Source: a virus. From it: DNA of 52,329 bases. This document shows positions 270 through 41,922 of this stretch, piece after piece. The notes under the pieces are model-generated. The model was given only the letters and a program-made list of their open reading frames with translations. It was not told the DNA's origin and ran no database searches. The first letter of the stretch is position 1. Every line of letters begins with the position of its first letter. A program made the position numbers and the translations under genes. The stretch covers positions 1 through 52,329 of IMG/VR virus record IMGVR_UViG_3300028361_000039. One strand, written 5' to 3'.

Positions 270-1142
270 CTACGTGCCCCACTTATTACCATACAATTGA
301 ATTTGTAGCCTCGGTGAGAACCTCCATCCCTGCTTTATAGCAATATCAGCTACTCGCTGTTCGTTCATTTCGTATTCTTCACTGCGGCCGCCCAACGGCA
401 TCAAATATACAGGACACGCTACTCCTGTTGATTGATACTCACCAACTGCTGTGTGTACTTCTTCAACATCAACTTCGTCTGCTACAACAAACTTGAGGTA
501 TATGTCGCTGTTAGGAAGTTCTTGAGTATAGCTTGCAACTATTTCAGGCTTTATCGCAGCTTTCCACGCCTCACCGGATACTGTTAGTTTAGGTGAGCAA
601 CTCCACATCAACTTCACCTCGGGCCTGCTCAACAATGCGGCAACTAATTCCGGTGACAATGGCTGGGTGCCATTGGTTTCAATAGTTATGTTTTTAAGAT
701 CATGCATTCCGGGGTGTTCTAGCAGTTTAGGCCAAAACTTCTGCCATAGCATTGGTTCACCTCCGGTAAGTATTAAGTGGATGTCTTGACCGTTGTCCAT
801 GGTCCATTTGCCTTGTGGGGTAACACTAAGTAAGTGTTTGACCACACTATCAACTTCTCCATCTTTCATGTATTTCTTAAATTCAGGGTAGATACTAGCG
901 TATGTATCACAGCCTGTATGAATTATAGGCAAGTCCTCAAACTTGTCGATGTCATTAAGTCTGTCACTTGTGATAAGTTCCTTAACTTCAGGATTGTGTT
1001 TAGCTTTAGGAGTCCCCCGTTCCAGGCCGAAATTTTCACAGCGAAAATTACAACCAAAGGTTCTCAAAAATACGCTAGGAACGCCTACAAATAAACCTTC
1101 ACCTTGCAAACTGGAGAAAACTTCTGAGTACCTCAATTTCAT
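270..1142 (-). CDS. queE: 7-carboxy-7-deazaguanine synthase QueE (radical SAM)
   Basis: A 290-residue radical SAM protein that would convert 6-carboxy-tetrahydropterin to 7-carboxy-7-deazaguanine, the ring-contraction step towards preQ0. The N-terminus SEVFSSLQGEG is the QueE substrate-binding signature, and LTGGEP (SAM 'GGE') follows mid-protein. Cluster cysteines are Cys31 and Cys35 (GCNFRC), but the third Cys expected two residues later is replaced by Phe-Gly; Cys78 in the TGCD segment is the likely substitute. I chose the ATG at 1140-1142 because GGGAG lies upstream, it starts one base after the folE stop, and an earlier in-frame start would overlap folE. With folE it forms a two-gene early unit. 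Confidence 0.92.
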   Translation of the reverse strand: MKLRYSEVFSSLQGEGLFVGVPSVFLRTFGCNFRCENFGLERGTPKAKHNPEVKELITSDRLNDIDKFEDLPIIHTGCDTYASIYPEFKKYMKDGEVDSVVKHLLSVTPQGKWTMDNGQDIHLILTGGEPMLWQKFWPKLLEHPGMHDLKNITIETNGTQPLSPELVAALLSRPEVKLMWSCSPKLTVSGEAWKAAIKPEIVASYTQELPNSDIYLKFVVADEVDVEEVHTAVGEYQSTGVACPVYLMPLGGRSEEYEMNEQRVADIAIKQGWRFSPRLQIQLYGNKWGT

Positions 1143-1143
1143 A

Positions 1144-1845
1144 TTAGTAAACTCCCTTACCACCCGACGACTGTTGTAGTTTAATGTTATCAAAAAATTC
1201 TTTCTTTGTACTTGGGTCAGATTTAAATGCTCCTCTCAGCACAGTAGTTTGGGTTAACGAGCTAGTAGCCATAATTCCCCTATTAGTACAGCATCCGTGT
1301 TCGGCGCCTACGTGCACAGCCACATCCAATGATTCAGTTGCTTTTTGTATTTCCTCAGCAATGTTGTTAGCCAATTGCTCCTGTAGAGTGCCGCGCCTTG
1401 AACACCATTGAGCAATGCGAGTGTACTTACTGAGACCGATTACTTTCTTACCTGGGATAATTCCAATGTAGGCAACACCAGTTACGGGCTGGTGATGATG
1501 CGAACACATACTACGCAGCTCTGAACGCACTACTAACATGCCAGTATAAGCTTCGATGCCTTCGTTTGGGAATGCAGTTGCCTTTGGGGCAGGGTTATAG
1601 CGGCCGCTCATTACTTCGTTGATGTACATTTTAGCAAGACGTCGACCAGTGTCCATTGAATTTGGATCAGTGTATCGGTCAATTACTAAACTGTCAAGAA
1701 CGCTTGTAAACTGATCTGCTAGTTCTAGAATTAGTTCTTCCTTCTCACCATCGAGAATGTATTCTGAAATGTTATCACCTGCCCAGTACCGGGCACCAGC
1801 GTTATTCAACCGTTGCTTAATTACTTCCGAAATTGTTTGTGTCAT
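1144..1845 (-). CDS. folE: GTP cyclohydrolase I
   Basis: A 233-residue FolE that turns GTP into dihydroneopterin triphosphate, the first step of both folate and 7-deazaguanine synthesis. Zinc ligands are visible: Cys114 and the His cluster 116-118 in MCSHHHQP, and Cys185/186 in AEHGCC. The family helix with MDTGRRLAKMYINE and the segment SELRSMC are present. Length is near the bacterial enzyme. It lies directly upstream of queE, one base apart, and behind a near-consensus promoter at 1897-1925, so the pair should be made early. In this setting the product most likely feeds preQ0 synthesis rather than folate, although folA and thyA are elsewhere in the window. Confidence 0.95.
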   Translation of the reverse strand: MTQTISEVIKQRLNNAGARYWAGDNISEYILDGEKEELILELADQFTSVLDSLVIDRYTDPNSMDTGRRLAKMYINEVMSGRYNPAPKATAFPNEGIEAYTGMLVVRSELRSMCSHHHQPVTGVAYIGIIPGKKVIGLSKYTRIAQWCSRRGTLQEQLANNIAEEIQKATESLDVAVHVGAEHGCCTNRGIMATSSLTQTTVLRGAFKSDPSTKKEFFDNIKLQQSSGGKGVY

Positions 1846-2146: not shown

Positions 2147-2779
2147 ATGATTATTTATTCTATATACCTTATTACGAACAACATTAACGGCAAGCAATAC
2201 GTAGGCTTTACATCACACCATCCAAAAAATAGATTCCAAAGGCATTGTCAATCTGCAAACAATGGCAGCAAAACAGTATTCCATAAAGCTATGCGTAAGT
2301 ATTCCTCAAAGAAATTTTCTGTTCAATGTCTATACCAAACTCTTGATAAAGATCATGCGTTGACGGAAATGGAGGAGCATTTTATTAAAGAATATAATAC
2401 TCACTTCATTCACGGAACTGGCTACAACATGAACTATGGCGGCGTAGGTGGCGACAATTCATCTAGCCCAAATTTTAAGGAATACATCGCAAATAGGAAT
2501 TATTATGGAGAGAATAATCCTTGCTACGGCCTAAAGCATGCCTATAAGCCTCGCTGGTCTAGAAGAGGCAAGTTACCGTTAAATTTCGAATCTTGGTCTA
2601 CTGCTGCAAAGGGTAAAAGCTATTATCACAATACTATGTTACAAACAGAAAAAAGATTCCTCCCTTCTGAGATTCCTCAGGGATGGGAGAAAGGGCGTCT
2701 TAAGATTGCATGTTCTTGCGGTAAGGATGTAGACATCTCTAATCTGAAGAAGTACCACGCCTCTTGTCAGAAACTCTAG
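2147..2779 (+). CDS. GIY-YIG homing endonuclease (Seg-like, free-standing)
   Basis: A 210-residue protein with the GIY-YIG nuclease module at residues 3-90: SIYLITN...GKQYVGFT holds the paired tyrosines, followed by a conserved Arg/His region and the catalytic-type Glu in MEEHFIKEYNT. The rest resembles the DNA-binding tail of phage Seg-type homing enzymes, with a CxC...C zinc-finger-like end (CSCGKDVD...HASCQ). It is one of only two plus-strand genes and overlaps the 3' end of the convergent phosphoribosyltransferase gene by 41 bases, which fits insertion as a mobile gene beside a conserved one. AAGGAC lies upstream of the ATG at a rather long spacing. Confidence 0.9.
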   Translation: MIIYSIYLITNNINGKQYVGFTSHHPKNRFQRHCQSANNGSKTVFHKAMRKYSSKKFSVQCLYQTLDKDHALTEMEEHFIKEYNTHFIHGTGYNMNYGGVGGDNSSSPNFKEYIANRNYYGENNPCYGLKHAYKPRWSRRGKLPLNFESWSTAAKGKSYYHNTMLQTEKRFLPSEIPQGWEKGRLKIACSCGKDVDISNLKKYHASCQKL

Positions 2780-6506: not shown

Positions 6507-6674
6507 TTAAGTCGGTGGATTTTGTCTTTGTACCATAGTTTGATGGTTTTTAAAACGATTAATTTCGTAGTTCGAAGCATACTCAGTATAGCGCCGTTTA
6601 ACTAGCGTGTCAACCTTGTTGTGTTGAAATTTAAGTTCTTCTAGTCGATTTACTTCTTTACTCGGGTTGTTCAT
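6507..6674 (-). CDS. Small DUF465/YdcH-like helical protein
   Basis: A 55-residue frame starting at the ATG at 6672-6674, inside the last codons of dpdA (17-base overlap), and ending TAA at 6507. The protein, MNNPSKEVNRLEELKFQHN..., is a charged helical hairpin: L-x-x-L-K-x-Q-H-x-x-V-D...KRRY, then NRFKNHQ. The pattern resembles the short YdcH/DUF465 family; the match is by eye. The overlap with dpdA and codon-by-codon openness support it. A promoter for the next gene lies within it. Confidence 0.6.
   Translation of the reverse strand: MNNPSKEVNRLEELKFQHNKVDTLVKRRYTEYASNYEINRFKNHQTMVQRQNPPT
6585..6613 (-). promoter_or_regulatory. Early promoter upstream of the 172-aa gene
   Basis: TTGACA (6608-6613), 17 bases, TATACT (6585-6590). 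The -10 is again part of a short dyad, ATACT-G-AGTAT. It is embedded in the small gene at 6507-6674. Confidence 0.85.
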
Positions 6675-8190
6675 CTTCTAAAATCTCCAAGTTCTGTTCT
6701 GCATCTTCTGCAAGATCATCATCTTTTTGTGACGAAGATTCAAACAAGTTATCAAAATAAGTACTGGCGTTTACTGTTTTTTTACCTACTGCTCCTCGGG
6801 TGCCAGGAATTGACATCCAAAAACGGCTGTGGTCGTTTACTATATCCAGAGCAGCTTCTCGCGTTGTCTGTGCAAATATCTTGTCCACTACATCACGAAA
6901 GAATATTTGATCAAACTGTTCTTCAACTAGCATCTTAGGTACAATACCGTTGTCGTACTGTCTGTTTGCTTCTTGTACAGCGTTGATGTGACTCCACACG
7001 TTGTGACCCATTTGAATAGCGTAACTAAATGAATCCCAGCTAGTCTTTCCTTCTTTACCGATCTTATTTAGATCACCCGGCGCATAGATACACACATCTG
7101 ATACTTTTAGTTCTTTTGTAAGAGGACTGTCTGTAAAGTTCTTAAAGACGCCATCAGTTAGCACAGTGTCACGAAATAGTCGACTGTCAGTAGAATACTT
7201 CTTGTTGTCTATGCTGGGCTGCATCCTGTAGACCCATTTCTTGCGATCAGGTGTTTCGGTATGAATATAAATTTGTCCGTTTGCTGTAGCAAGGAACGGT
7301 GACGCACAGTCAAAAGTAACCATGAAGTTCGGGTTATGATACTTGCGAACCGCACGTTGTATATCGGTTAACAAAGTAGCCCACTCTAGCTTGCTTGTTC
7401 CCAGGAAGTGCATTACGTCATGTATGCCTTGCTCTAATAAGCCGTCAAATCGCAGTGCTACAAGCCGTTTAAGCACGAGATGAACGTCACACATGTTTTG
7501 CCCACCCATACTCCATCCATTGAAATGGCGGTCTGGATAGATAGTTGGATCGCAGTAGTCTTTCATCTGCTGATACCAGTCTTCGGCGTCTGCATGATTT
7601 TCACCTTGTAATACGTTGAGAAACTTGCATGCTCCGGTTCTGTGCTTCATCCAATAGTCGTTATTAATACGAGTTGCTGCTACTGCTTCACTGTAAGTGC
7701 TTATTCCCGTTGCTTTGGCGCCTTCTGGGCTACGTGCTACCCATGCAGGGATGTCAAGGATCATGCCATAGTCCATGTACGCATCCATCCAGCGCAGAAC
7801 TCCATCGCGCTTCTTCTGCGCTTTAGGACAGTTTGGATCTTTCCAGTCACCTTCCCAAACACCCTTCCCGATTTGAAATCCACCGGAATCCGCCAACATC
7901 CATGTGTTCTCACGATCACGGTTGCGTATCATGTCTTCTTTAGGTGAGTGCTTGTTAATATCAAGCTCAGCGTGACCAGCAGAATACAAACTCCATTTGT
8001 ACTGGAACTGGCCTTCTTTATGGTTTAGGTAATTTAGACTTTCAACTCCGTGATTAAAGTTACTGGGAATGCGTGATGTTAACACATATTCACCGTACCG
8101 TTGCTTACCTACGTAGGTGGCATAAAAACCACTAAGTGCTGGCAGGAAAAATGCGTAATCTTTTTGTTCTGCTGTTAGGTTTTTATTCAT
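6658..8190 (-). CDS. dpdA: DpdA-like 7-deazaguanine DNA transglycosylase (TGT superfamily)
   Basis: A 510-residue protein of the tRNA-guanine transglycosylase superfamily. Asp101 in LADSGGFQIGKG matches the TGT Asp of the DSGGFQ motif, FLNVLQGEN (about 190-198) and GWSMGGQN (about 225-232) match the base-binding loops, and Asp294 in VTFDCASPF matches the TGT nucleophile. The zinc site and other features of bacterial Tgt at the C-terminus are not visible, and the protein is longer than Tgt, as in phage DpdA proteins that exchange guanine for preQ0-type bases in DNA. With folE, queE and a QueD-like gene nearby this is the expected role. A QueC is not in the window. Its start joins the previous gene by TAATG. 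Confidence 0.87.
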   Translation of the reverse strand: MNKNLTAEQKDYAFFLPALSGFYATYVGKQRYGEYVLTSRIPSNFNHGVESLNYLNHKEGQFQYKWSLYSAGHAELDINKHSPKEDMIRNRDRENTWMLADSGGFQIGKGVWEGDWKDPNCPKAQKKRDGVLRWMDAYMDYGMILDIPAWVARSPEGAKATGISTYSEAVAATRINNDYWMKHRTGACKFLNVLQGENHADAEDWYQQMKDYCDPTIYPDRHFNGWSMGGQNMCDVHLVLKRLVALRFDGLLEQGIHDVMHFLGTSKLEWATLLTDIQRAVRKYHNPNFMVTFDCASPFLATANGQIYIHTETPDRKKWVYRMQPSIDNKKYSTDSRLFRDTVLTDGVFKNFTDSPLTKELKVSDVCIYAPGDLNKIGKEGKTSWDSFSYAIQMGHNVWSHINAVQEANRQYDNGIVPKMLVEEQFDQIFFRDVVDKIFAQTTREAALDIVNDHSRFWMSIPGTRGAVGKKTVNASTYFDNLFESSSQKDDDLAEDAEQNLEILEDEQPE

Positions 8191-8576
8191 TACTTTCCTT
8201 TAGTATTCAGTAAGTCGTCAAAGTTTCCGTACACTGTACTGTTTGTCGGAATTTTATACTTTGCTGTACCCACGTTACTGCCAACAGGTAGGTTACCGAC
8301 GTCCCAGCGGCCAATGCCGTTAAAGTATTGCCCGTCGTTATAGTCTTTATACCTTGCTGCTTGATTGATAGTTATAACTTCTTTTTCAAGAGTAGATATA
8401 CGACTGAGAATACTAGCTAACGGTCCAGGACCTGCAGATATTTCCTCAGCCTCGACAATGCTTGCTACTAGCATAAAGTTACGCAGTGCTTTTTTGACAC
8501 TGCGGTTATTTGACGCTAACGCAGCGTCAAATAATCTTGCAAGTTCGTAAAGGTCTACTTCGTTGTCTTCGTTCAT
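8190..8576 (-). CDS. Conserved hypothetical protein (128 aa)
   Basis: An acidic 128-residue protein. The N-terminal part, ELARLFDAALASNNRSVKKALRNF, is a helical motif I recall from conserved marine T4-like phage proteins, followed by a short coiled coil (LSRISTLEKEVITIN) and a polar tail. Function unknown. It lies between the gp45 clamp and dpdA in the same transcript and its stop overlaps the dpdA start. Confidence 0.8.
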   Translation of the reverse strand: MNEDNEVDLYELARLFDAALASNNRSVKKALRNFMLVASIVEAEEISAGPGPLASILSRISTLEKEVITINQAARYKDYNDGQYFNGIGRWDVGNLPVGSNVGTAKYKIPTNSTVYGNFDDLLNTKGK

Positions 8577-9394: not shown

Positions 9395-10381
9395 TTAGCT
9401 TCCAAAGTCAAAAAGACTATTGAACGTAGTTGTTTGTTTTGTGCTTTCTAAGTCGTAATCAAGTACTCCTATAAGATTGCCTAGCTTATTATCGATAATA
9501 GTTCCTGCCATTGCACCATCGTCAAACGGCAACTCTTTAAACCATTCCGGCAAACGTAACTCATCAGTTGGATATGCAATGCTAGTATATCCCAATGGAT
9601 TAGGTTTTAGTTTGCAAACAATGCATTTCATTCCATCAGTTGCTTCTTGTGAATATTGGTCTCCGTGCATGCGTCTAAGGGCGTTCCAATTTATTGCTGC
9701 TCTTACGTGGCCTGGCATGTTGGCCTTGCCCTGCTTTTCTTCAAGACGTTGATAATGTCCTAGATTGTTTACACGTTTGGGAGTGCCTTTTTCCCAAGCA
9801 GGTCTATCTATAAATTCTTTTCTAAATACAGTAATTCGATCTAGTACTATTTCTCGATCAACATTTGTCAAAACCATATACAGTATTTCTTTCAAAAAGT
9901 CCTGCATATACACTGGAGTGTCGCTGCGTCGTAAGTCTAGCCCCATTGCCTTGACTTTACCTTCCGCCCCATCTACATCTTTGCGCTTTCCTTCGTCGTC
10001 GTATACTAGTGTAGCGTATCGCTTTTTAGTAATAAATAATCCCGAGCTAGCAACAATCTCTCTGCCTGCTTTGATAACTTCTGCTCTAGACTTAGCACAA
10101 TGAAATGCTTTTGCTGCAAAGTCTACAAACGTAGTGTCTACTTGTGCACTAACTTGGTCATATAGAGAAACTACACTGTCCTTATCCCAAGGGATACTAC
10201 CTTCCTTGATGTCTTTTTTCAGCGTAGGATACGCACTGAAGTAGACTGAGTCAGTGTTGTGTACTAGTATGTCGTTAGCAAAAAAGAACGGATCTTGTTG
10301 AACCATTGACACATCGTACACATAGTCGTCTACTTCGCCTAAGCAAGTAACTTTCTTTACTTTTGTTCTAATAGTATTCAA
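9395..10381 (-). CDS. gp43: DNA polymerase gp43, C-terminal part with split-intein C fragment
   Basis: A 328-residue protein. Residues 1-42 are an intein C fragment ending FANDILVHN; residue 43 starts the extein TDSVYFSAYPTLKKD, the second half of polymerase motif C (YGD/TDS). The remaining 286 residues are the thumb/palm end of a family B polymerase, with a C-terminal FNSLFDFGS tail like the clamp-binding tail of T4 gp43. Splicing in trans with the product of the upstream gene would restore the polymerase: 200+411+286 = 897 residues, against 898 in T4. The gap to the upstream gene is only 29 bases and holds a GGAGGTATCC ribosome site. Confidence 0.93.
   Translation of the reverse strand: MNTIRTKVKKVTCLGEVDDYVYDVSMVQQDPFFFANDILVHNTDSVYFSAYPTLKKDIKEGSIPWDKDSVVSLYDQVSAQVDTTFVDFAAKAFHCAKSRAEVIKAGREIVASSGLFITKKRYATLVYDDEGKRKDVDGAEGKVKAMGLDLRRSDTPVYMQDFLKEILYMVLTNVDREIVLDRITVFRKEFIDRPAWEKGTPKRVNNLGHYQRLEEKQGKANMPGHVRAAINWNALRRMHGDQYSQEATDGMKCIVCKLKPNPLGYTSIAYPTDELRLPEWFKELPFDDGAMAGTIIDNKLGNLIGVLDYDLESTKQTTTFNSLFDFGS
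10256..10381 (-). other. Split intein C fragment (42 codons)
   Basis: Encodes a basic head (NTIRTKVKKVT), then the intein block F region (DDYVYDVSMVQQDPFFFAND) and block G, ILVHN, with Thr as the +1 extein residue. Its partner is encoded at 10414-10776. The basic head here and the acidic tail of the N fragment (NLEEDDLII) are complementary, as in other split inteins. Confidence 0.92.
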
Positions 10382-10410
10382 TTGGATACCTCCTGTAGAT
10401 AATTTGTCAG

Positions 10411-13400
10411 TTAGATAGTAATAATTAAGTCATCTTCTTCTAAGTTTTTCGGAGTAACCTCAGTAGTAATTCCGTGTCGGTCTACAATTAAACTATGATC
10501 TTCTGTTACTGTGACCTTCTTCCCGTCATCAGTTTCAATTTCGTATAACTTCTTTTTGGTCTTGTGTCGCATCACGTAAGCTATTTCTCCAAATACCGCT
10601 TCATCTTCAAAAGCATTGTAACCAAGCACTGCGTTATTTTCTTTTTCCATTTCAGTTCTAGGAATTGCGTATTCCTTGCCTTGATCTTGTATTACTCTGT
10701 AATCAAAACGATTAAATAGATCTTCGATAGAAATCTTTTTATCATTAAGCGTAATTAAAGTGTCTCCGGTCACACTGTCACCATAAATTACAGCTTCTCC
10801 GACATGGTCATACACCCCAGTAATGGTTTTATTTACTTCTGCGCTCATATGTTTAACGATCTGTCTACCGGTTAGTGTAGTTGACTGTCCGATTCGCTTG
10901 TCAAAAAATCTACAGCCCGGATTCAAAATTGCCCCATAAAGAGAGTTCAACGAAATTTTCTTTACCAGTTGACGCTTGTCCCAAAATGTTATTTCGGTTT
11001 TGTTACCGGCTGTAATAGCTTTCTTTAACATTCCCTGTAGGTCTTTACGTTCAGCGTACCAACGCTTTAAAAGACCCGGAATAACTCCTTCAAACTCAGT
11101 TGTAAAGATTGTGCCATTAGCACTGATCATCCAAGGCATTCGACTTTCAAATATCAGTTTGTATATTTCTGCACCGCTGAGCACATCGTGTCTACCATCC
11201 TCCCAGTCAATAGTCAACGCAACGTCTTTTCGTTTGTCCATTACAGCAACATATTCAAGACTTCCAAAATGACCTTCCCATGCACCTGCAAACGTTTTCT
11301 TTTGAAGTGTCATTGCTTCATGGACCATTCTGTCTGTCATGTCTGGCCGAAGTTGCCCTACAACAGTTTCGGGCCCCATGTTTAGTGCTCGAATCACACT
11401 AGGATACAGTGAATTTAAGTCCATTGAACCTATAGCTAAGTGTAGTCCTTTTTTTGGAAAGGCAACGTATGCACCTGCTGCCTGCGTGTTTTCGGTACTA
11501 TGCTTTTTTCTATTTGGTACCTGCAGACCTCTGTGATGTGCTTCATTTATAATTGCCTGCTCAGTAATAGCAACAGCTCCCATAACTGTTTTCAACATCA
11601 CTGTGTTAGCGTGTGCAAGTTCGTTGGACAAGTCAATAAATTTCAGCTTCTTGTCTAGCTTGTCTAACAGTGCAGTGTCCTGTCTGTTGTATTCAACAAA
11701 CGTTTCAAAGTCGTTGTTATACAACTGATCTAGTGTTCCTTCATATACCGTCTTATTTTCGCCTATCTCTAGCTCGCCGATTGCATCAAGTCTATAAGTG
11801 TGTCGTTCTTCGTAAGTGTATTTCCTATAAAGATTTAGACTGTCAAGATGCACACGTCCAACAAAGTCATAGGTCTCAGATGTCTTTCCAAACTTTTCGT
11901 ATTCTCGCTTCTTAGGAAGTTCTCCCCATAGGCAAAACTTTCGCGTGTCGTCTTTGCTTAATACGCGCTGTATACGATTTACAGTGTAGGGCACGTCATA
12001 CCCCTCTGAATTATGAACTTTTGTCCCATTGCAAACAAAGTAATGTGAGGTAGTTTCAATATCACCCATTGGTATCATTTCGTCTGTTTCAACAATACGT
12101 TTGACTTTTACAATGACCTCGTTTGAATCTGCGTCGTGGAACCACCGAATTTTGCAGTTGGCTGAATTTTTCTTATCAAATAATGCCGGCAACTTTTGCT
12201 TTTTACTATGCAAAGGCTTGATTTTGAGTAGTTGCTCTTTGCAAAACGCTACATATTTAATACGAACAATGTTGTCATTTACTGTGGTAATAAATCCGTT
12301 CCACTTCAATAATACATTCAGTTTACGTGATTGGTTCTCAAAATTGCATATCTCCGCATGCCAAGTCGCCACTGAGCCATCACCATCAATACAGCCACTG
12401 ATAAACGCACAGAACTGGTCCTCAGACAGCATAGACAATAGTTCGACATTTAACTCTTTTTTAGCTGATTCACTGTATATCATATTTCGAAGAACAGAGA
12501 ATTTATTGTGCCTACTAAAACCAACGTAGAAACAACCATCCTTTCTACGATTTATTAAATTCACATATCCAATGCCCTCGTTGTTTATAATGTCAACTGC
12601 TGCCTGGGCCAATACTTGATTAGAGTTGCAAAATGAATAAGTGCCGCCATAACTGTCAAACGTACCGTCAGTAAACATCATTCCAAGCAACCTGCACATA
12701 TCAGCCGATATAACTTCGTCTTTTGATATACACTTTTCTTTGGATAGATGACTTTGTTGGAATTTAAGTGAGTCCTCTATCTCCTCGACCGTAGTTATAA
12801 TAGGCAGTGTATTTTCTGTAAACAGCTTACCGTAAGTCATTGCATTATTAGTGTTGCGGTGTATTGGCTGCCGTAAATAAACATCTTGAGTTTTCATTCT
12901 TTCTTTAATAGAGGATATGTTACCTTCGACGCTATTTAATTTTAGCGTATTAAGGTTTTTGTATTTTCTCTTATCTTTAAAATAATGCGGAATAACATGC
13001 TCATCCGATATATCTATTGTTGCGCCAAAATCGTCAACTAGTACATTTTTTTGTTTTAAGCCAGAATCAAACGTGTTTACAACACTTGCGTTAGATAGTG
13101 TGTCTCCCTTTTTTATATTTCCTAGTGTCTTAATTCTATCGTCTAGGTATACCTGCTCATTTATGCCAATGCAGTTCCAACCGCTGTGCACATCAGCATC
13201 TTCCAACAGGTCCAAGAACGTAAGCAGCATATCCTGCTCACCTTTGCCTTTGGAATCGTTAGGAAACAGTATTACCTCATCTCCCCATCTCTTTTGACAC
13301 ATTGCCCTGGCTTCCTCTAGTGGGAGACCTTTGGGCGGTACTGCTAGTGTGATCAACATGCTGTCTAGCCACTGTAGGCATACTGTGATAGCTGTAATGG

Positions 13401-13773
13401 GCATAAACGGGTCGTCAATCGGAGCCCATCCACGCACTGGGTCGAAGTCAGTTTCGATGTCCCAAAACAATACGTTTAGCTTAGGGGAATCCTGATTGAG
13501 ATAGTTTTCACTTAGGCATTGGAAAATTGGATTAATGTCGCTTTCAAACAGTGTCTTGTCTCTGTTAATAGCAACTTCTTTTCGGAAGTCTTTAGTATTC
13601 TTTGCAACAATTCTACTTAGACTATCGCCAAAGATACTCTGATGCTTTCCTTTTGGGTCTTTGTAATAAAACGTATACTTAACCGGATATTCTACAAAGG
13701 TTCGTTTTCCTTCGCGTCTTTCAACAACGCGAATAACGTCTTCTTTTCTATCAAATAATGCGTCAACGTACAT
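10411..13773 (-). CDS. gp43: DNA polymerase gp43, N-terminal part, with internal intein and split-intein N fragment
   Basis: A 1120-residue precursor: extein 200 aa, intein 388 aa, extein 411 aa, intein N fragment 121 aa. Exo I is WDIET (Asp105, Glu107), Exo II is GWN...SEGYD across the first intein, Exo III is YNRQD. Polymerase motif A MDLNSLYPSVIR and motif B SLNSLYGAILNPG are intact; motif C ends YGD at the split point. I chose the ATG at 13771-13773 (MYVDALFDRK) because GGAGAA lies upstream and the family starts there; an in-frame ATG 15 codons earlier is less likely. Neither half has both motif C aspartates, so activity should need trans-splicing. It follows the dsbA-like gene group in one early transcript. 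Confidence 0.94.
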   Translation of the reverse strand: MYVDALFDRKEDVIRVVERREGKRTFVEYPVKYTFYYKDPKGKHQSIFGDSLSRIVAKNTKDFRKEVAINRDKTLFESDINPIFQCLSENYLNQDSPKLNVLFWDIETDFDPVRGWAPIDDPFMPITAITVCLQWLDSMLITLAVPPKGLPLEEARAMCQKRWGDEVILFPNDSKGKGEQDMLLTFLDLLEDADVHSGWNCIGINEQVYLDDRIKTLGNIKKGDTLSNASVVNTFDSGLKQKNVLVDDFGATIDISDEHVIPHYFKDKRKYKNLNTLKLNSVEGNISSIKERMKTQDVYLRQPIHRNTNNAMTYGKLFTENTLPIITTVEEIEDSLKFQQSHLSKEKCISKDEVISADMCRLLGMMFTDGTFDSYGGTYSFCNSNQVLAQAAVDIINNEGIGYVNLINRRKDGCFYVGFSRHNKFSVLRNMIYSESAKKELNVELLSMLSEDQFCAFISGCIDGDGSVATWHAEICNFENQSRKLNVLLKWNGFITTVNDNIVRIKYVAFCKEQLLKIKPLHSKKQKLPALFDKKNSANCKIRWFHDADSNEVIVKVKRIVETDEMIPMGDIETTSHYFVCNGTKVHNSEGYDVPYTVNRIQRVLSKDDTRKFCLWGELPKKREYEKFGKTSETYDFVGRVHLDSLNLYRKYTYEERHTYRLDAIGELEIGENKTVYEGTLDQLYNNDFETFVEYNRQDTALLDKLDKKLKFIDLSNELAHANTVMLKTVMGAVAITEQAIINEAHHRGLQVPNRKKHSTENTQAAGAYVAFPKKGLHLAIGSMDLNSLYPSVIRALNMGPETVVGQLRPDMTDRMVHEAMTLQKKTFAGAWEGHFGSLEYVAVMDKRKDVALTIDWEDGRHDVLSGAEIYKLIFESRMPWMISANGTIFTTEFEGVIPGLLKRWYAERKDLQGMLKKAITAGNKTEITFWDKRQLVKKISLNSLYGAILNPGCRFFDKRIGQSTTLTGRQIVKHMSAEVNKTITGVYDHVGEAVIYGDSVTGDTLITLNDKKISIEDLFNRFDYRVIQDQGKEYAIPRTEMEKENNAVLGYNAFEDEAVFGEIAYVMRHKTKKKLYEIETDDGKKVTVTEDHSLIVDRHGITTEVTPKNLEEDDLIITI
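10414..10776 (-). other. Split intein N fragment (121 codons)
   Basis: Begins SVTGDTLITL (block A, Ser1) directly after polymerase YGD and includes block B, VTEDHSLIV (T-x-x-H), then ends in an acidic tail at a stop codon. No endonuclease domain. The insertion point equals the pol-c intein site known in archaeal family B polymerases, including the naturally split Nanoarchaeum equitans enzyme. Confidence 0.92.
12010..13173 (-). other. Intein with LAGLIDADG homing endonuclease, in gp43 Exo II
   Basis: A 388-codon in-frame insertion. It starts with Cys (CIGINEQVYL), has a block B-like SDEHVI, two LAGLIDADG-type motifs (LLGMMFTDGTF and FISGCIDGDGS), and ends FVCNGTKVHN before Ser+1. The flanking exteins HSGWN and SEGYDVPY join to make the Exo II motif of family B polymerases. 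Both DOD motifs keep the acidic residues, so the endonuclease may be active. Confidence 0.95.
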
Positions 13774-14556: not shown

Positions 14557-14585
14557 ATTATACGGTTTTTTTGACAGGATGTCAA
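14557..14585 (-). promoter_or_regulatory. Early promoter for dsbA and polymerase
   Basis: TTGACA (14580-14585), 17 bases, TATAAT (14557-14562): a perfect sigma70 consensus. It overlaps the last codons of the gene ending at 14582. A direct repeat of AGTAAC lies in the leader. Confidence 0.92.
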
Positions 14586-41400: not shown

Positions 41401-41922
41401 TTATCTCATGAACTCATGGAAGTCTAGGCCATATTGAATTGAGTGTATTTTGTGCACTCCGATTAAATACAGTACAAAACTTGCTACACTAGATCCTCTG
41501 CCGACTCCCCAAACTATTTCATTCTCTCTCATAAAATCAACTAAAAATATCATATACCTAAGTATATTAATCATATTACGAGATTGATATTCTTCTAGTT
41601 CACTAGTTAGTCTGTTTATTTCGTTTTGATTCGAGCATAATCCAACAAGGTGATCGTAAATATCTATCTTTAGATACTCGTCAGGCATGAACCACTCAGA
41701 CTGGCAGGCATTATCGAATTCTACCATTGTTGTAGTTGATGAGTTGTAGACTTGTAATCCTGAAGTATACCTTTCTTTTGCAACGGCATTAAACCGTTGT
41801 ACGTCAGCTGTGTCTTCACACTGTACAAGGTGTACTTTATCTGCATGTCCGCTGTAGATCATGTTTACGAGATCTAAAGTGGTGAAGATTGGTGTTCCTA
41901 ACTTGTCTGTTTTTACAATCAT
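41401..41922 (-). CDS. DnaE-like fragment (bacterial DNA polymerase III alpha motif)
   Basis: A 173-residue protein. Its last 50 residues (IVWGVGRGSSVASFVLYLIG, then KIHSIQYGLDFHEFMR) strongly resemble the GPGRGSAAGSLVAYLLGI-type segment of family C polymerases (DnaE palm). LLRYMIFLVDFMREN precedes it, as in DnaE. The catalytic palm carboxylates that follow in DnaE are missing because the gene ends. So it cannot be a polymerase, but may be a nucleotide-binding or regulatory derivative. It sits behind a weak promoter at 41929-41957. Confidence 0.72.
   Translation of the reverse strand: MIVKTDKLGTPIFTTLDLVNMIYSGHADKVHLVQCEDTADVQRFNAVAKERYTSGLQVYNSSTTTMVEFDNACQSEWFMPDEYLKIDIYDHLVGLCSNQNEINRLTSELEEYQSRNMINILRYMIFLVDFMRENEIVWGVGRGSSVASFVLYLIGVHKIHSIQYGLDFHEFMR

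What the first reader, a model, noticed from the sequence alone, without database searches (positions are those of the whole stretch)
9395..13773. DNA polymerase gp43 encoded as two genes joined by a split intein in catalytic motif C
The upstream gene ends in YGD followed by an intein N fragment (10414-10776); the downstream gene starts with an intein C fragment (10256-10381) followed by TDSVYF. The break falls between the two aspartates of the polymerase motif C, so neither gene product can polymerise alone. The three exteins total 897 residues, nearly T4 gp43 (898). Ser1, the T-x-x-H block, terminal HN and Thr+1 are all intact. Acidic tail on the N fragment and basic head on the C fragment fit split-intein pairing. 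The same site is split in the archaeon Nanoarchaeum equitans; environmental phage split inteins are known for other genes (for example gp41 helicase). Whether this exact phage case is described I cannot tell.
Basis: partly seen in the sequence, partly recalled or inferred. Interest (0 to 1): 0.95.

Follow-up and report, generated by a model that had tools for sequence, protein, structure and literature searches.

The report
Phage polymerase split by trans-splicing intein
This environmental phage encodes its replicative DNA polymerase as two genes whose proteins must be stitched together at the active site by a two-part self-removing insert (a split intein); the arrangement is real and under strong selection, but phage polymerases of this kind are already known.

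Summary
A T4-type family B DNA polymerase (897 extein residues) is encoded as two adjacent minus-strand genes. The first ends YGD + 121-aa IntN; the second begins with a 42-aa IntC + TDS. IntN's best solved-structure match is the Aes123 PolB1 split intein. An AlphaFold model of a fused relative has that fold (TM 0.89). Against a sister phage, the two intein fragments show 37 synonymous but only 6 non-synonymous changes, so they are functional or were until very recently.

It is not new in kind. Split inteins in motif C of phage PolB are published (Aes123, CP21, MIJ3), and YGD^TDS is the archaeal/Mimivirus pol-c site, split in Nanoarchaeum equitans.

What I add: (1) a large environmental-phage family uses exactly this site, mostly with a Vsr-like homing-endonuclease gene between the halves; here only 29 nt and a Shine-Dalgarno remain. 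(2) The nearest polymerase (95% identical) has a different split intein two residues away (YGDTD^S), and 68 close relatives have none: fast turnover at one active site. (3) The same gene carries a second, contiguous intein-like insertion in the exonuclease active site, absent from the sister phage. Splicing was not tested.

The parts
13174..13773 (-). N-extein part 1 of the PolB/gp43-like polymerase (200 aa), ends GWN; AAGGAG lies about 10 nt before the ATG
   Evidence: RB69 gp43 homology
12010..13173 (-). Second, contiguous intein-like insertion in exonuclease motif Exo II (388 aa, C1 ... VHN^S), with LAGLIDADG-like motifs
   Evidence: precise empty site in sister locus L092; weak LAGLIDADG_3 hit E 0.004-0.02
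10777..12009 (-). N-extein part 2 (411 aa), holds motif A (DLNSLYPS) and ends in motif C residues YGD
10414..10776 (-). IntN: N-terminal split-intein fragment (121 aa; Ser1, NX-type RH, TEDH block)
10382..10413 (-). TAA stop of the N gene plus a 29-nt spacer; Shine-Dalgarno AGGAGGT at 10394-10388, 6 nt before the TTG start; position held by a homing-endonuclease gene in most relatives
10256..10381 (-). IntC: C-terminal split-intein fragment (42 aa, TTG start, VYD block, terminal HN)
9395..10255 (-). C-extein (286 aa + stop), begins TDSVYF with Thr+1 and the second motif C aspartate
14557..14585 (-). Consensus sigma-70-like promoter (TTGACA-17-TATAAT) upstream of two small ORFs and the polymerase genes; none found between the two halves on the minus strand
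   Evidence: pattern match only

Best explanation
A phage replicative DNA polymerase (family B, T4 gp43 type) is made as two polypeptides. Each carries half of a class 1, serine-type split intein. The halves associate, fold into one Hint domain, and splice by Ser1 N-O acyl shift, transfer to Thr+1 and Asn cyclisation, joining YGD to TDS to give an 897-residue enzyme with intact motif C. The arrangement derives from a 'fractured gene': a homing element (split intein plus a free-standing Vsr-like endonuclease gene between the halves) invaded the pol-c site, and in this lineage the endonuclease gene was later deleted down to 29 nt, so the split intein is now kept only because the polymerase depends on it. 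A second, contiguous intein-like insertion in Exo II must be spliced in cis for proofreading. Shown: the sequence arrangement, homology, fold of a fused relative, purifying selection, the decay series of the endonuclease, empty sites. Inferred: that splicing occurs, its chemistry, and the homing history.
For: IntN/IntC tile the Pfam intein model end to end. IntN's best PDB match is 9HTH, the Aes123 PolB1 split intein, E 1.1e-10; profile of the family E 3.2e-23. AlphaFold model of the naturally fused relative L137 (pLDDT 95.4) matches 9HTH at TM 0.89. Ser1, TxDH and VYD are invariant in 36 of 36 representative relatives, HN^TDS in 34 of 36. Sister locus L092: IntN dS 0.557, dN 0.012; IntC dS 0.361, dN 0.025; 6 non-synonymous of 43 changes, P about 8e-20 under neutrality. 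The spliced junction VGEAVIYGDTDSVYFSAY matches intein-less relatives. 27 of 36 relatives have 0.9-2 kb between the halves, mostly one ~320-aa endonuclease family; L154, L148 and L165 hold remnants; the window has the shortest gap. Experiments on relatives: Aes123 and CP21 PolB split inteins splice in vitro (PMC11923092, PMC12707363).
Against: No splicing data for this phage. IntC alone is a weak family match, below Pfam's curated cut-off. Block F lacks the usual His (QQDPFFF), as in its relatives. The Vsr assignment of the endonuclease rests on weak sequence similarity (E about 0.6, but all three hits are Vsr). The exonuclease insertion has no detectable homologue outside this phage and no splicing-domain profile hit.
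Confidence: 0.93

Rival explanations
1. The two halves assemble non-covalently into an active two-subunit polymerase, and the intein fragments are inactive remnants that merely hold the halves together.
For: Split family B polymerases exist in archaea (PMC4104785 discusses split PolB3 genes). SCTP-2, L137, L156 and L160 have KN instead of HN at the C end, which could mean weakened splicing in some relatives.
Against: In the window and 34 of 36 relatives every catalytic residue checked is kept, and dN/dS across the intein fragments is about 0.02-0.07. The break separates the two motif C aspartates by 163 foreign residues.
Confidence: 0.04
2. Sequencing or assembly error: the polymerase is really one gene with a contiguous mini-intein, as in L137 or L012.
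For: Contiguous forms exist in relatives: L012/L013, L137 and SCTP-2.
Against: Two further contigs carry the identical locus and the divergent sister L092 keeps the same stop, 29-nt spacer, Shine-Dalgarno and TTG start. The two reading frames differ.
Confidence: 0.01
3. The intein no longer splices and the phage replicates with another polymerase.
For: The window is a 52-kb fragment, so other genes of the phage are unseen. A small Pol III alpha-like gene is present at 41401-41922.
Against: Strong purifying selection on exteins (extN2 dN 0.006, dS 0.387) and intein; only one family B polymerase in the record; clamp-loader gene in the same record. The Pol III-like gene is a 173-aa fragment family.
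Confidence: 0.02

Closest known systems
Aes123 PolB1 and CP21 PolB1 split inteins (T4-like phages of Aeromonas and Campylobacter)
   Same: Cysteine-independent serine-type split intein in a phage PolB gene; similar fragment lengths (115/39 aa for CP21, PMC12707363); same fold as the Aes structure.
   Different: CP21, LCGC14 and GOM-OPS-1 use Ser+1 (PMC12707363) and CP21 lies at TD^S; here Thr+1 at YGD^TDS. No endonuclease gene between the halves here. A second intein-like insertion in the same gene.
PolB split intein of Pseudomonas phages MIJ3 / PA5oct (PMC6892783)
   Same: Best cultured match to the C gene (49.6% over 99%) and to IntN (38.8%); split polymerase.
   Different: Inserted two residues later (YGDTD^S, Ser+1) with a 1.7-kb endonuclease gene between the halves.
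Nanoarchaeum equitans PolB split intein and the pol-c allele of archaea and Mimivirus (PMC549080)
   Same: Same insertion point (YGD|TDS) and, for Mimivirus, the same Ser1/Thr+1 nucleophiles.
   Different: Archaeal or giant-virus hosts; N. equitans halves are not adjacent in the genome; the Mimivirus one is contiguous with a LAGLIDADG domain. IntN's sequence is closest to phage inteins.
Klebsiella phages KP13-7 and phiKp_21 (Alcyoneusvirus), unannotated
   Same: Cultured phages with a split intein at exactly YGD^TDS (found here).
   Different: A ~325-aa endonuclease gene lies between the halves and IntC carries a long N-terminal leader; annotated only as hypothetical proteins.
'Fractured genes' of Dassa et al. 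2009 (not readable here; cited by PMC6892783 and PMC12350094)
   Same: Gene broken by a split intein with a free-standing Vsr-related homing endonuclease between the halves, as in most relatives.
   Different: In this window the endonuclease gene is gone.

Membership tests
Class 1 inteins (Hint fold, PF14890) | Sequence and fold of the splicing domain | tested here: met
   model of fused relative L137, TM 0.89 to 9HTH
Class 1 inteins (Hint fold, PF14890) | Cys/Ser1, TxxH, block F Asp, terminal HN, Ser/Thr/Cys+1 | tested here: met
   Ser1, TEDH, VYD, HN, Thr+1
Class 1 inteins (Hint fold, PF14890) | Splices its flanks | not testable with these tools
   Needs expression; relatives splice in vitro (PMC11923092, PMC12707363)
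Natural split inteins | Two separate genes, each a half intein fused to half of one host protein | tested here: met
Cysteine-less (oxyester) inteins | Ser/Thr at both junctions and NX-motif His preceded by Arg/Lys (PMC10189870) | tested here: met
   Ser1, Thr+1, RH in YVMRHKT, invariant H71 of IntN; one non-catalytic Cys in IntC
pol-c insertion allele | Insertion at YGD|TDS of family B polymerases | tested here: met
   definition from PMC549080
Fractured genes (split intein + endonuclease between halves) | Free-standing homing endonuclease gene between the halves | tested here: not met
   Only 29 nt in the window; present in about 27 of 36 representative relatives
Family B DNA polymerase, gp43 type | Exo and Pol motifs complete once spliced | tested here: met
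   PHROG 262 covered by both halves; RB69 gp43 alignments
LAGLIDADG intein (second insertion, 12010-13173) | Splicing-domain and endonuclease homology, precise empty site | tested here: inconclusive
   Empty site precise in L092, junctions C1/HN/S+1 by eye, weak LAGLIDADG_3 E 0.004-0.02; no splicing-domain hit, no homologues

The most novel reading that the evidence does not exclude
Motif C of phage PolB is an arena where related split-intein elements compete for two overlapping insertion points two codons apart (YGD^TDS and YGDTD^S). Elements are exchanged, lost, stripped of their endonuclease or re-fused into contiguous inteins within a single polymerase clade, and this phage has additionally interrupted its proofreading site, so both active sites of its replicase depend on protein splicing, one in trans and one in cis.
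Probability: 0.5. Interest if true: 0.6.

Novelty: new member of a known kind. Interest (0 to 1): 0.45.

Why it matters
It adds a well-supported Thr+1, pol-c-site split intein to the few known cysteine-independent split inteins, which are sought as protein-engineering tools, and points to dozens more. For evolution, the locus and its relatives show consecutive states of one element: empty site, split intein with endonuclease, truncated endonuclease, endonuclease lost (this window), and apparent re-fusion to a contiguous intein that still contains the former start codon. That makes the question whether split inteins can revert directly testable.

Tried and rejected
AlphaFold of the exonuclease insertion alone: pLDDT 31, uninformative. 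Searches for homologues of that insertion in viral contigs, phages, plasmids and prokaryote genomes found only the same phage; Pfam/NCBIfam on its splicing parts gave nothing. Frameshift/assembly artefact rejected. Pfam gave no name to the intervening endonuclease; a profile gave only Vsr hits at E about 0.6. The 2009 'Fractured genes' paper and the 2019 Aes123 paper are not held, so I could not check whether a phage PolB at exactly this site was listed there. One query failed for a wrong frame. I did not fold the IntN+IntC pair of the window itself because a joined sequence is not a window protein; the fused relative L137 was used instead.

Full report
WHAT IS THERE. On the minus strand, one gene (ATG 13773 to stop 10411) encodes the first 611 extein residues of a family B DNA polymerase, interrupted by a 388-residue insertion (12010-13173) and ending YGD followed by a 121-residue tail (10414-10776). 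After 29 nt a second gene (TTG 10381 to stop 9395) starts with 42 residues ending VHN, then TDSVYF and the rest of the polymerase. Exteins sum to 200+411+286 = 897. The open frame upstream of the TTG has no other start codon; the TTG is preceded by AGGAGGT at 6 nt. Both halves hit PHROG 262 (DNA polymerase) in complementary parts, and the only two PF00136 matches of the record are these halves.

IT IS A SPLIT INTEIN. The two fragments match positions 2-94 and 121-155 of the 155-position Pfam intein model; NCBIfam intein_Nterm E 1e-13. The closest solved structure to IntN is 9HTH, the fused Aes123 PolB1 split intein of an Aeromonas phage; a family profile reaches E 3.2e-23. IntC's best solved matches are the PolB16 intein and gp41-1. 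Ser1, the Arg-His of the NX motif that PMC10189870 describes as specific to cysteine-independent inteins, TEDH, VYD, HN and Thr+1 are in place. A relative, L137, has the same intein as one contiguous 159-aa domain; the window's two fragments tile it exactly, with the C gene's start Met kept inside it. Its AlphaFold model (pLDDT 95.4) matches 9HTH with TM 0.89.

IT IS UNDER SELECTION. Locus L092 is a sister phage with the same split. Between the two, IntN has dS 0.557 and dN 0.012, IntC 0.361 and 0.025, close in constraint to the polymerase (0.387 and 0.006). Six of 43 changes in the intein fragments are non-synonymous where 79% would be expected: P about 8e-20. The stop, the 29-nt spacer length, the Shine-Dalgarno and the TTG start are also kept.

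WHERE IT SITS. By alignment to RB69 gp43 the N gene ends at the Asp of YGD (residue 621) and an intein-less relative aligns straight through YGDTDS, so the motif A Asp and the second motif C Asp (both catalytic in gp43, from established knowledge) lie on different polypeptides. YGD|TDS is the pol-c site of archaeal and Mimivirus inteins, and N. equitans is split there (PMC549080).

KNOWN PRECEDENTS. A split PolB with a split intein was reported in MIJ3 (PMC6892783); Aes123, CP21 and metagenomic PolB split inteins have been purified and shown to splice (PMC11923092, PMC12707363); PTm1 is annotated as an intein-containing split polymerase. MIJ3, PTm1, CP21 and the Lak phage sequences lie two residues further on, at TD^S junctions. 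At exactly YGD^TDS I found two cultured phages, KP13-7 and phiKp_21, annotated only as hypothetical proteins, the contiguous SCTP-2 intein, and a large environmental family: 68 of the sequences analysed here, 37 after 98% extein clustering, from a scan that was capped at 80 of 234 hits.

TURNOVER. The polymerase nearest to the window (L010, 95% identical, sister with 100% support) has a different split intein (IntN 40% identical) at the other site, with an endonuclease gene of about 1 kb. The smallest well-supported clade of six holds two YGD^TDS split forms, one YGDTD^S split form, one YGDTD^S contiguous form and two intein-less polymerases; 68 close relatives have no intein. In the intein tree the window groups with YGD^TDS inteins of distant polymerases, not with L010. 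Intein and polymerase histories therefore disagree, which argues for horizontal exchange. Both site types carry the same ~320-aa endonuclease family (48% identical between L015 and L010); its profile finds only Vsr endonucleases, weakly, in line with the PTm1 annotation and the EDxHD/Vsr family cited from Dassa et al. (PMC12350094). Gap lengths fall into full-length (27 of 36, 0.9-2 kb) and reduced (9 of 36), with recognisable remnants in L154 and L148, and in L165 at the other site; the window has the shortest. L012/L013 and L137 appear re-fused: in L012 the sequence runs from the end of IntN directly into the former start ATG of the C gene. The direction (re-fusion rather than an ancestral state) is inferred from the retained start codon.

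SECOND INSERTION. The 388-aa insertion 12010-13173 separates Asn from the Asp of Exo II (GWN^SEGYD; aligned to GWNVESFD of RB69, where that Asp reads Ala in structure 3KD1. That this Asp is the exonuclease residue D222 is established knowledge). Its junctions (C1, HN, S+1) and two LAGLIDADG-like motifs look like a standard intein, and L092 has the exact empty site, but no profile recognises its splicing domain and it has no homologue in any collection searched. I therefore call it an intein only by inference. If right, both active sites of this replicase are interrupted.

VERDICT. The kind is known. The site family, the endonuclease-free end state, the site switching between near-identical polymerases and the doubly interrupted enzyme are the additions. 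Limits: no splicing data, the record is a 52-kb fragment, and two key papers were not readable here.

Noticed in passing
window 12010-13173 (-): Contiguous intein-like insertion in the Exo II motif of the same polymerase gene; precise empty site in sister locus L092; no detectable homologue anywhere searched.
   Followed up: yes
window around 12009-13174 versus L092: Identity to the sister phage drops from about 98% to about 92% at the exonuclease insertion and stays low across the split intein, suggesting a recombination or co-conversion boundary.
   Followed up: partly
L012 from 3232, L013 from 5055, L137:7001-7477: Contiguous inteins that appear to be re-fused split inteins, with the former start Met of the C gene inside the domain.
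   Followed up: partly
L170, L171 (Klebsiella phages phiKp_21 and KP13-7): Cultured phages with an unannotated split intein at YGD^TDS and an endonuclease gene between the halves.
   Followed up: partly
L005, L137, L156, L160: KN instead of HN at the intein C terminus in several YGD^TDS inteins; splicing may be slowed or compensated.
   Followed up: no
window 41401-41922 (-): Stand-alone 173-aa gene matching only a short segment of Pol III alpha (PF07733 E 1.8e-10) and a phage family of that length (phrog_11127); function unclear.
   Followed up: no
window 270-1193, 1144-1845, 6658-8190 (-): QueE-like radical SAM gene, GTP cyclohydrolase I, and a 510-aa protein with a tRNA-guanine-transglycosylase-like SGGFQ stretch but no family hit: possible 7-deazaguanine DNA modification.
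   Followed up: no
window 2147-2779 (+): GIY-YIG endonuclease gene on the opposite strand, a possible free-standing homing endonuclease.
   Followed up: no
L101, between the polymerase halves (about 7376-8535): In this relative the space between the halves holds a radical-SAM-like ORF (by eye) rather than the usual endonuclease.
   Followed up: no
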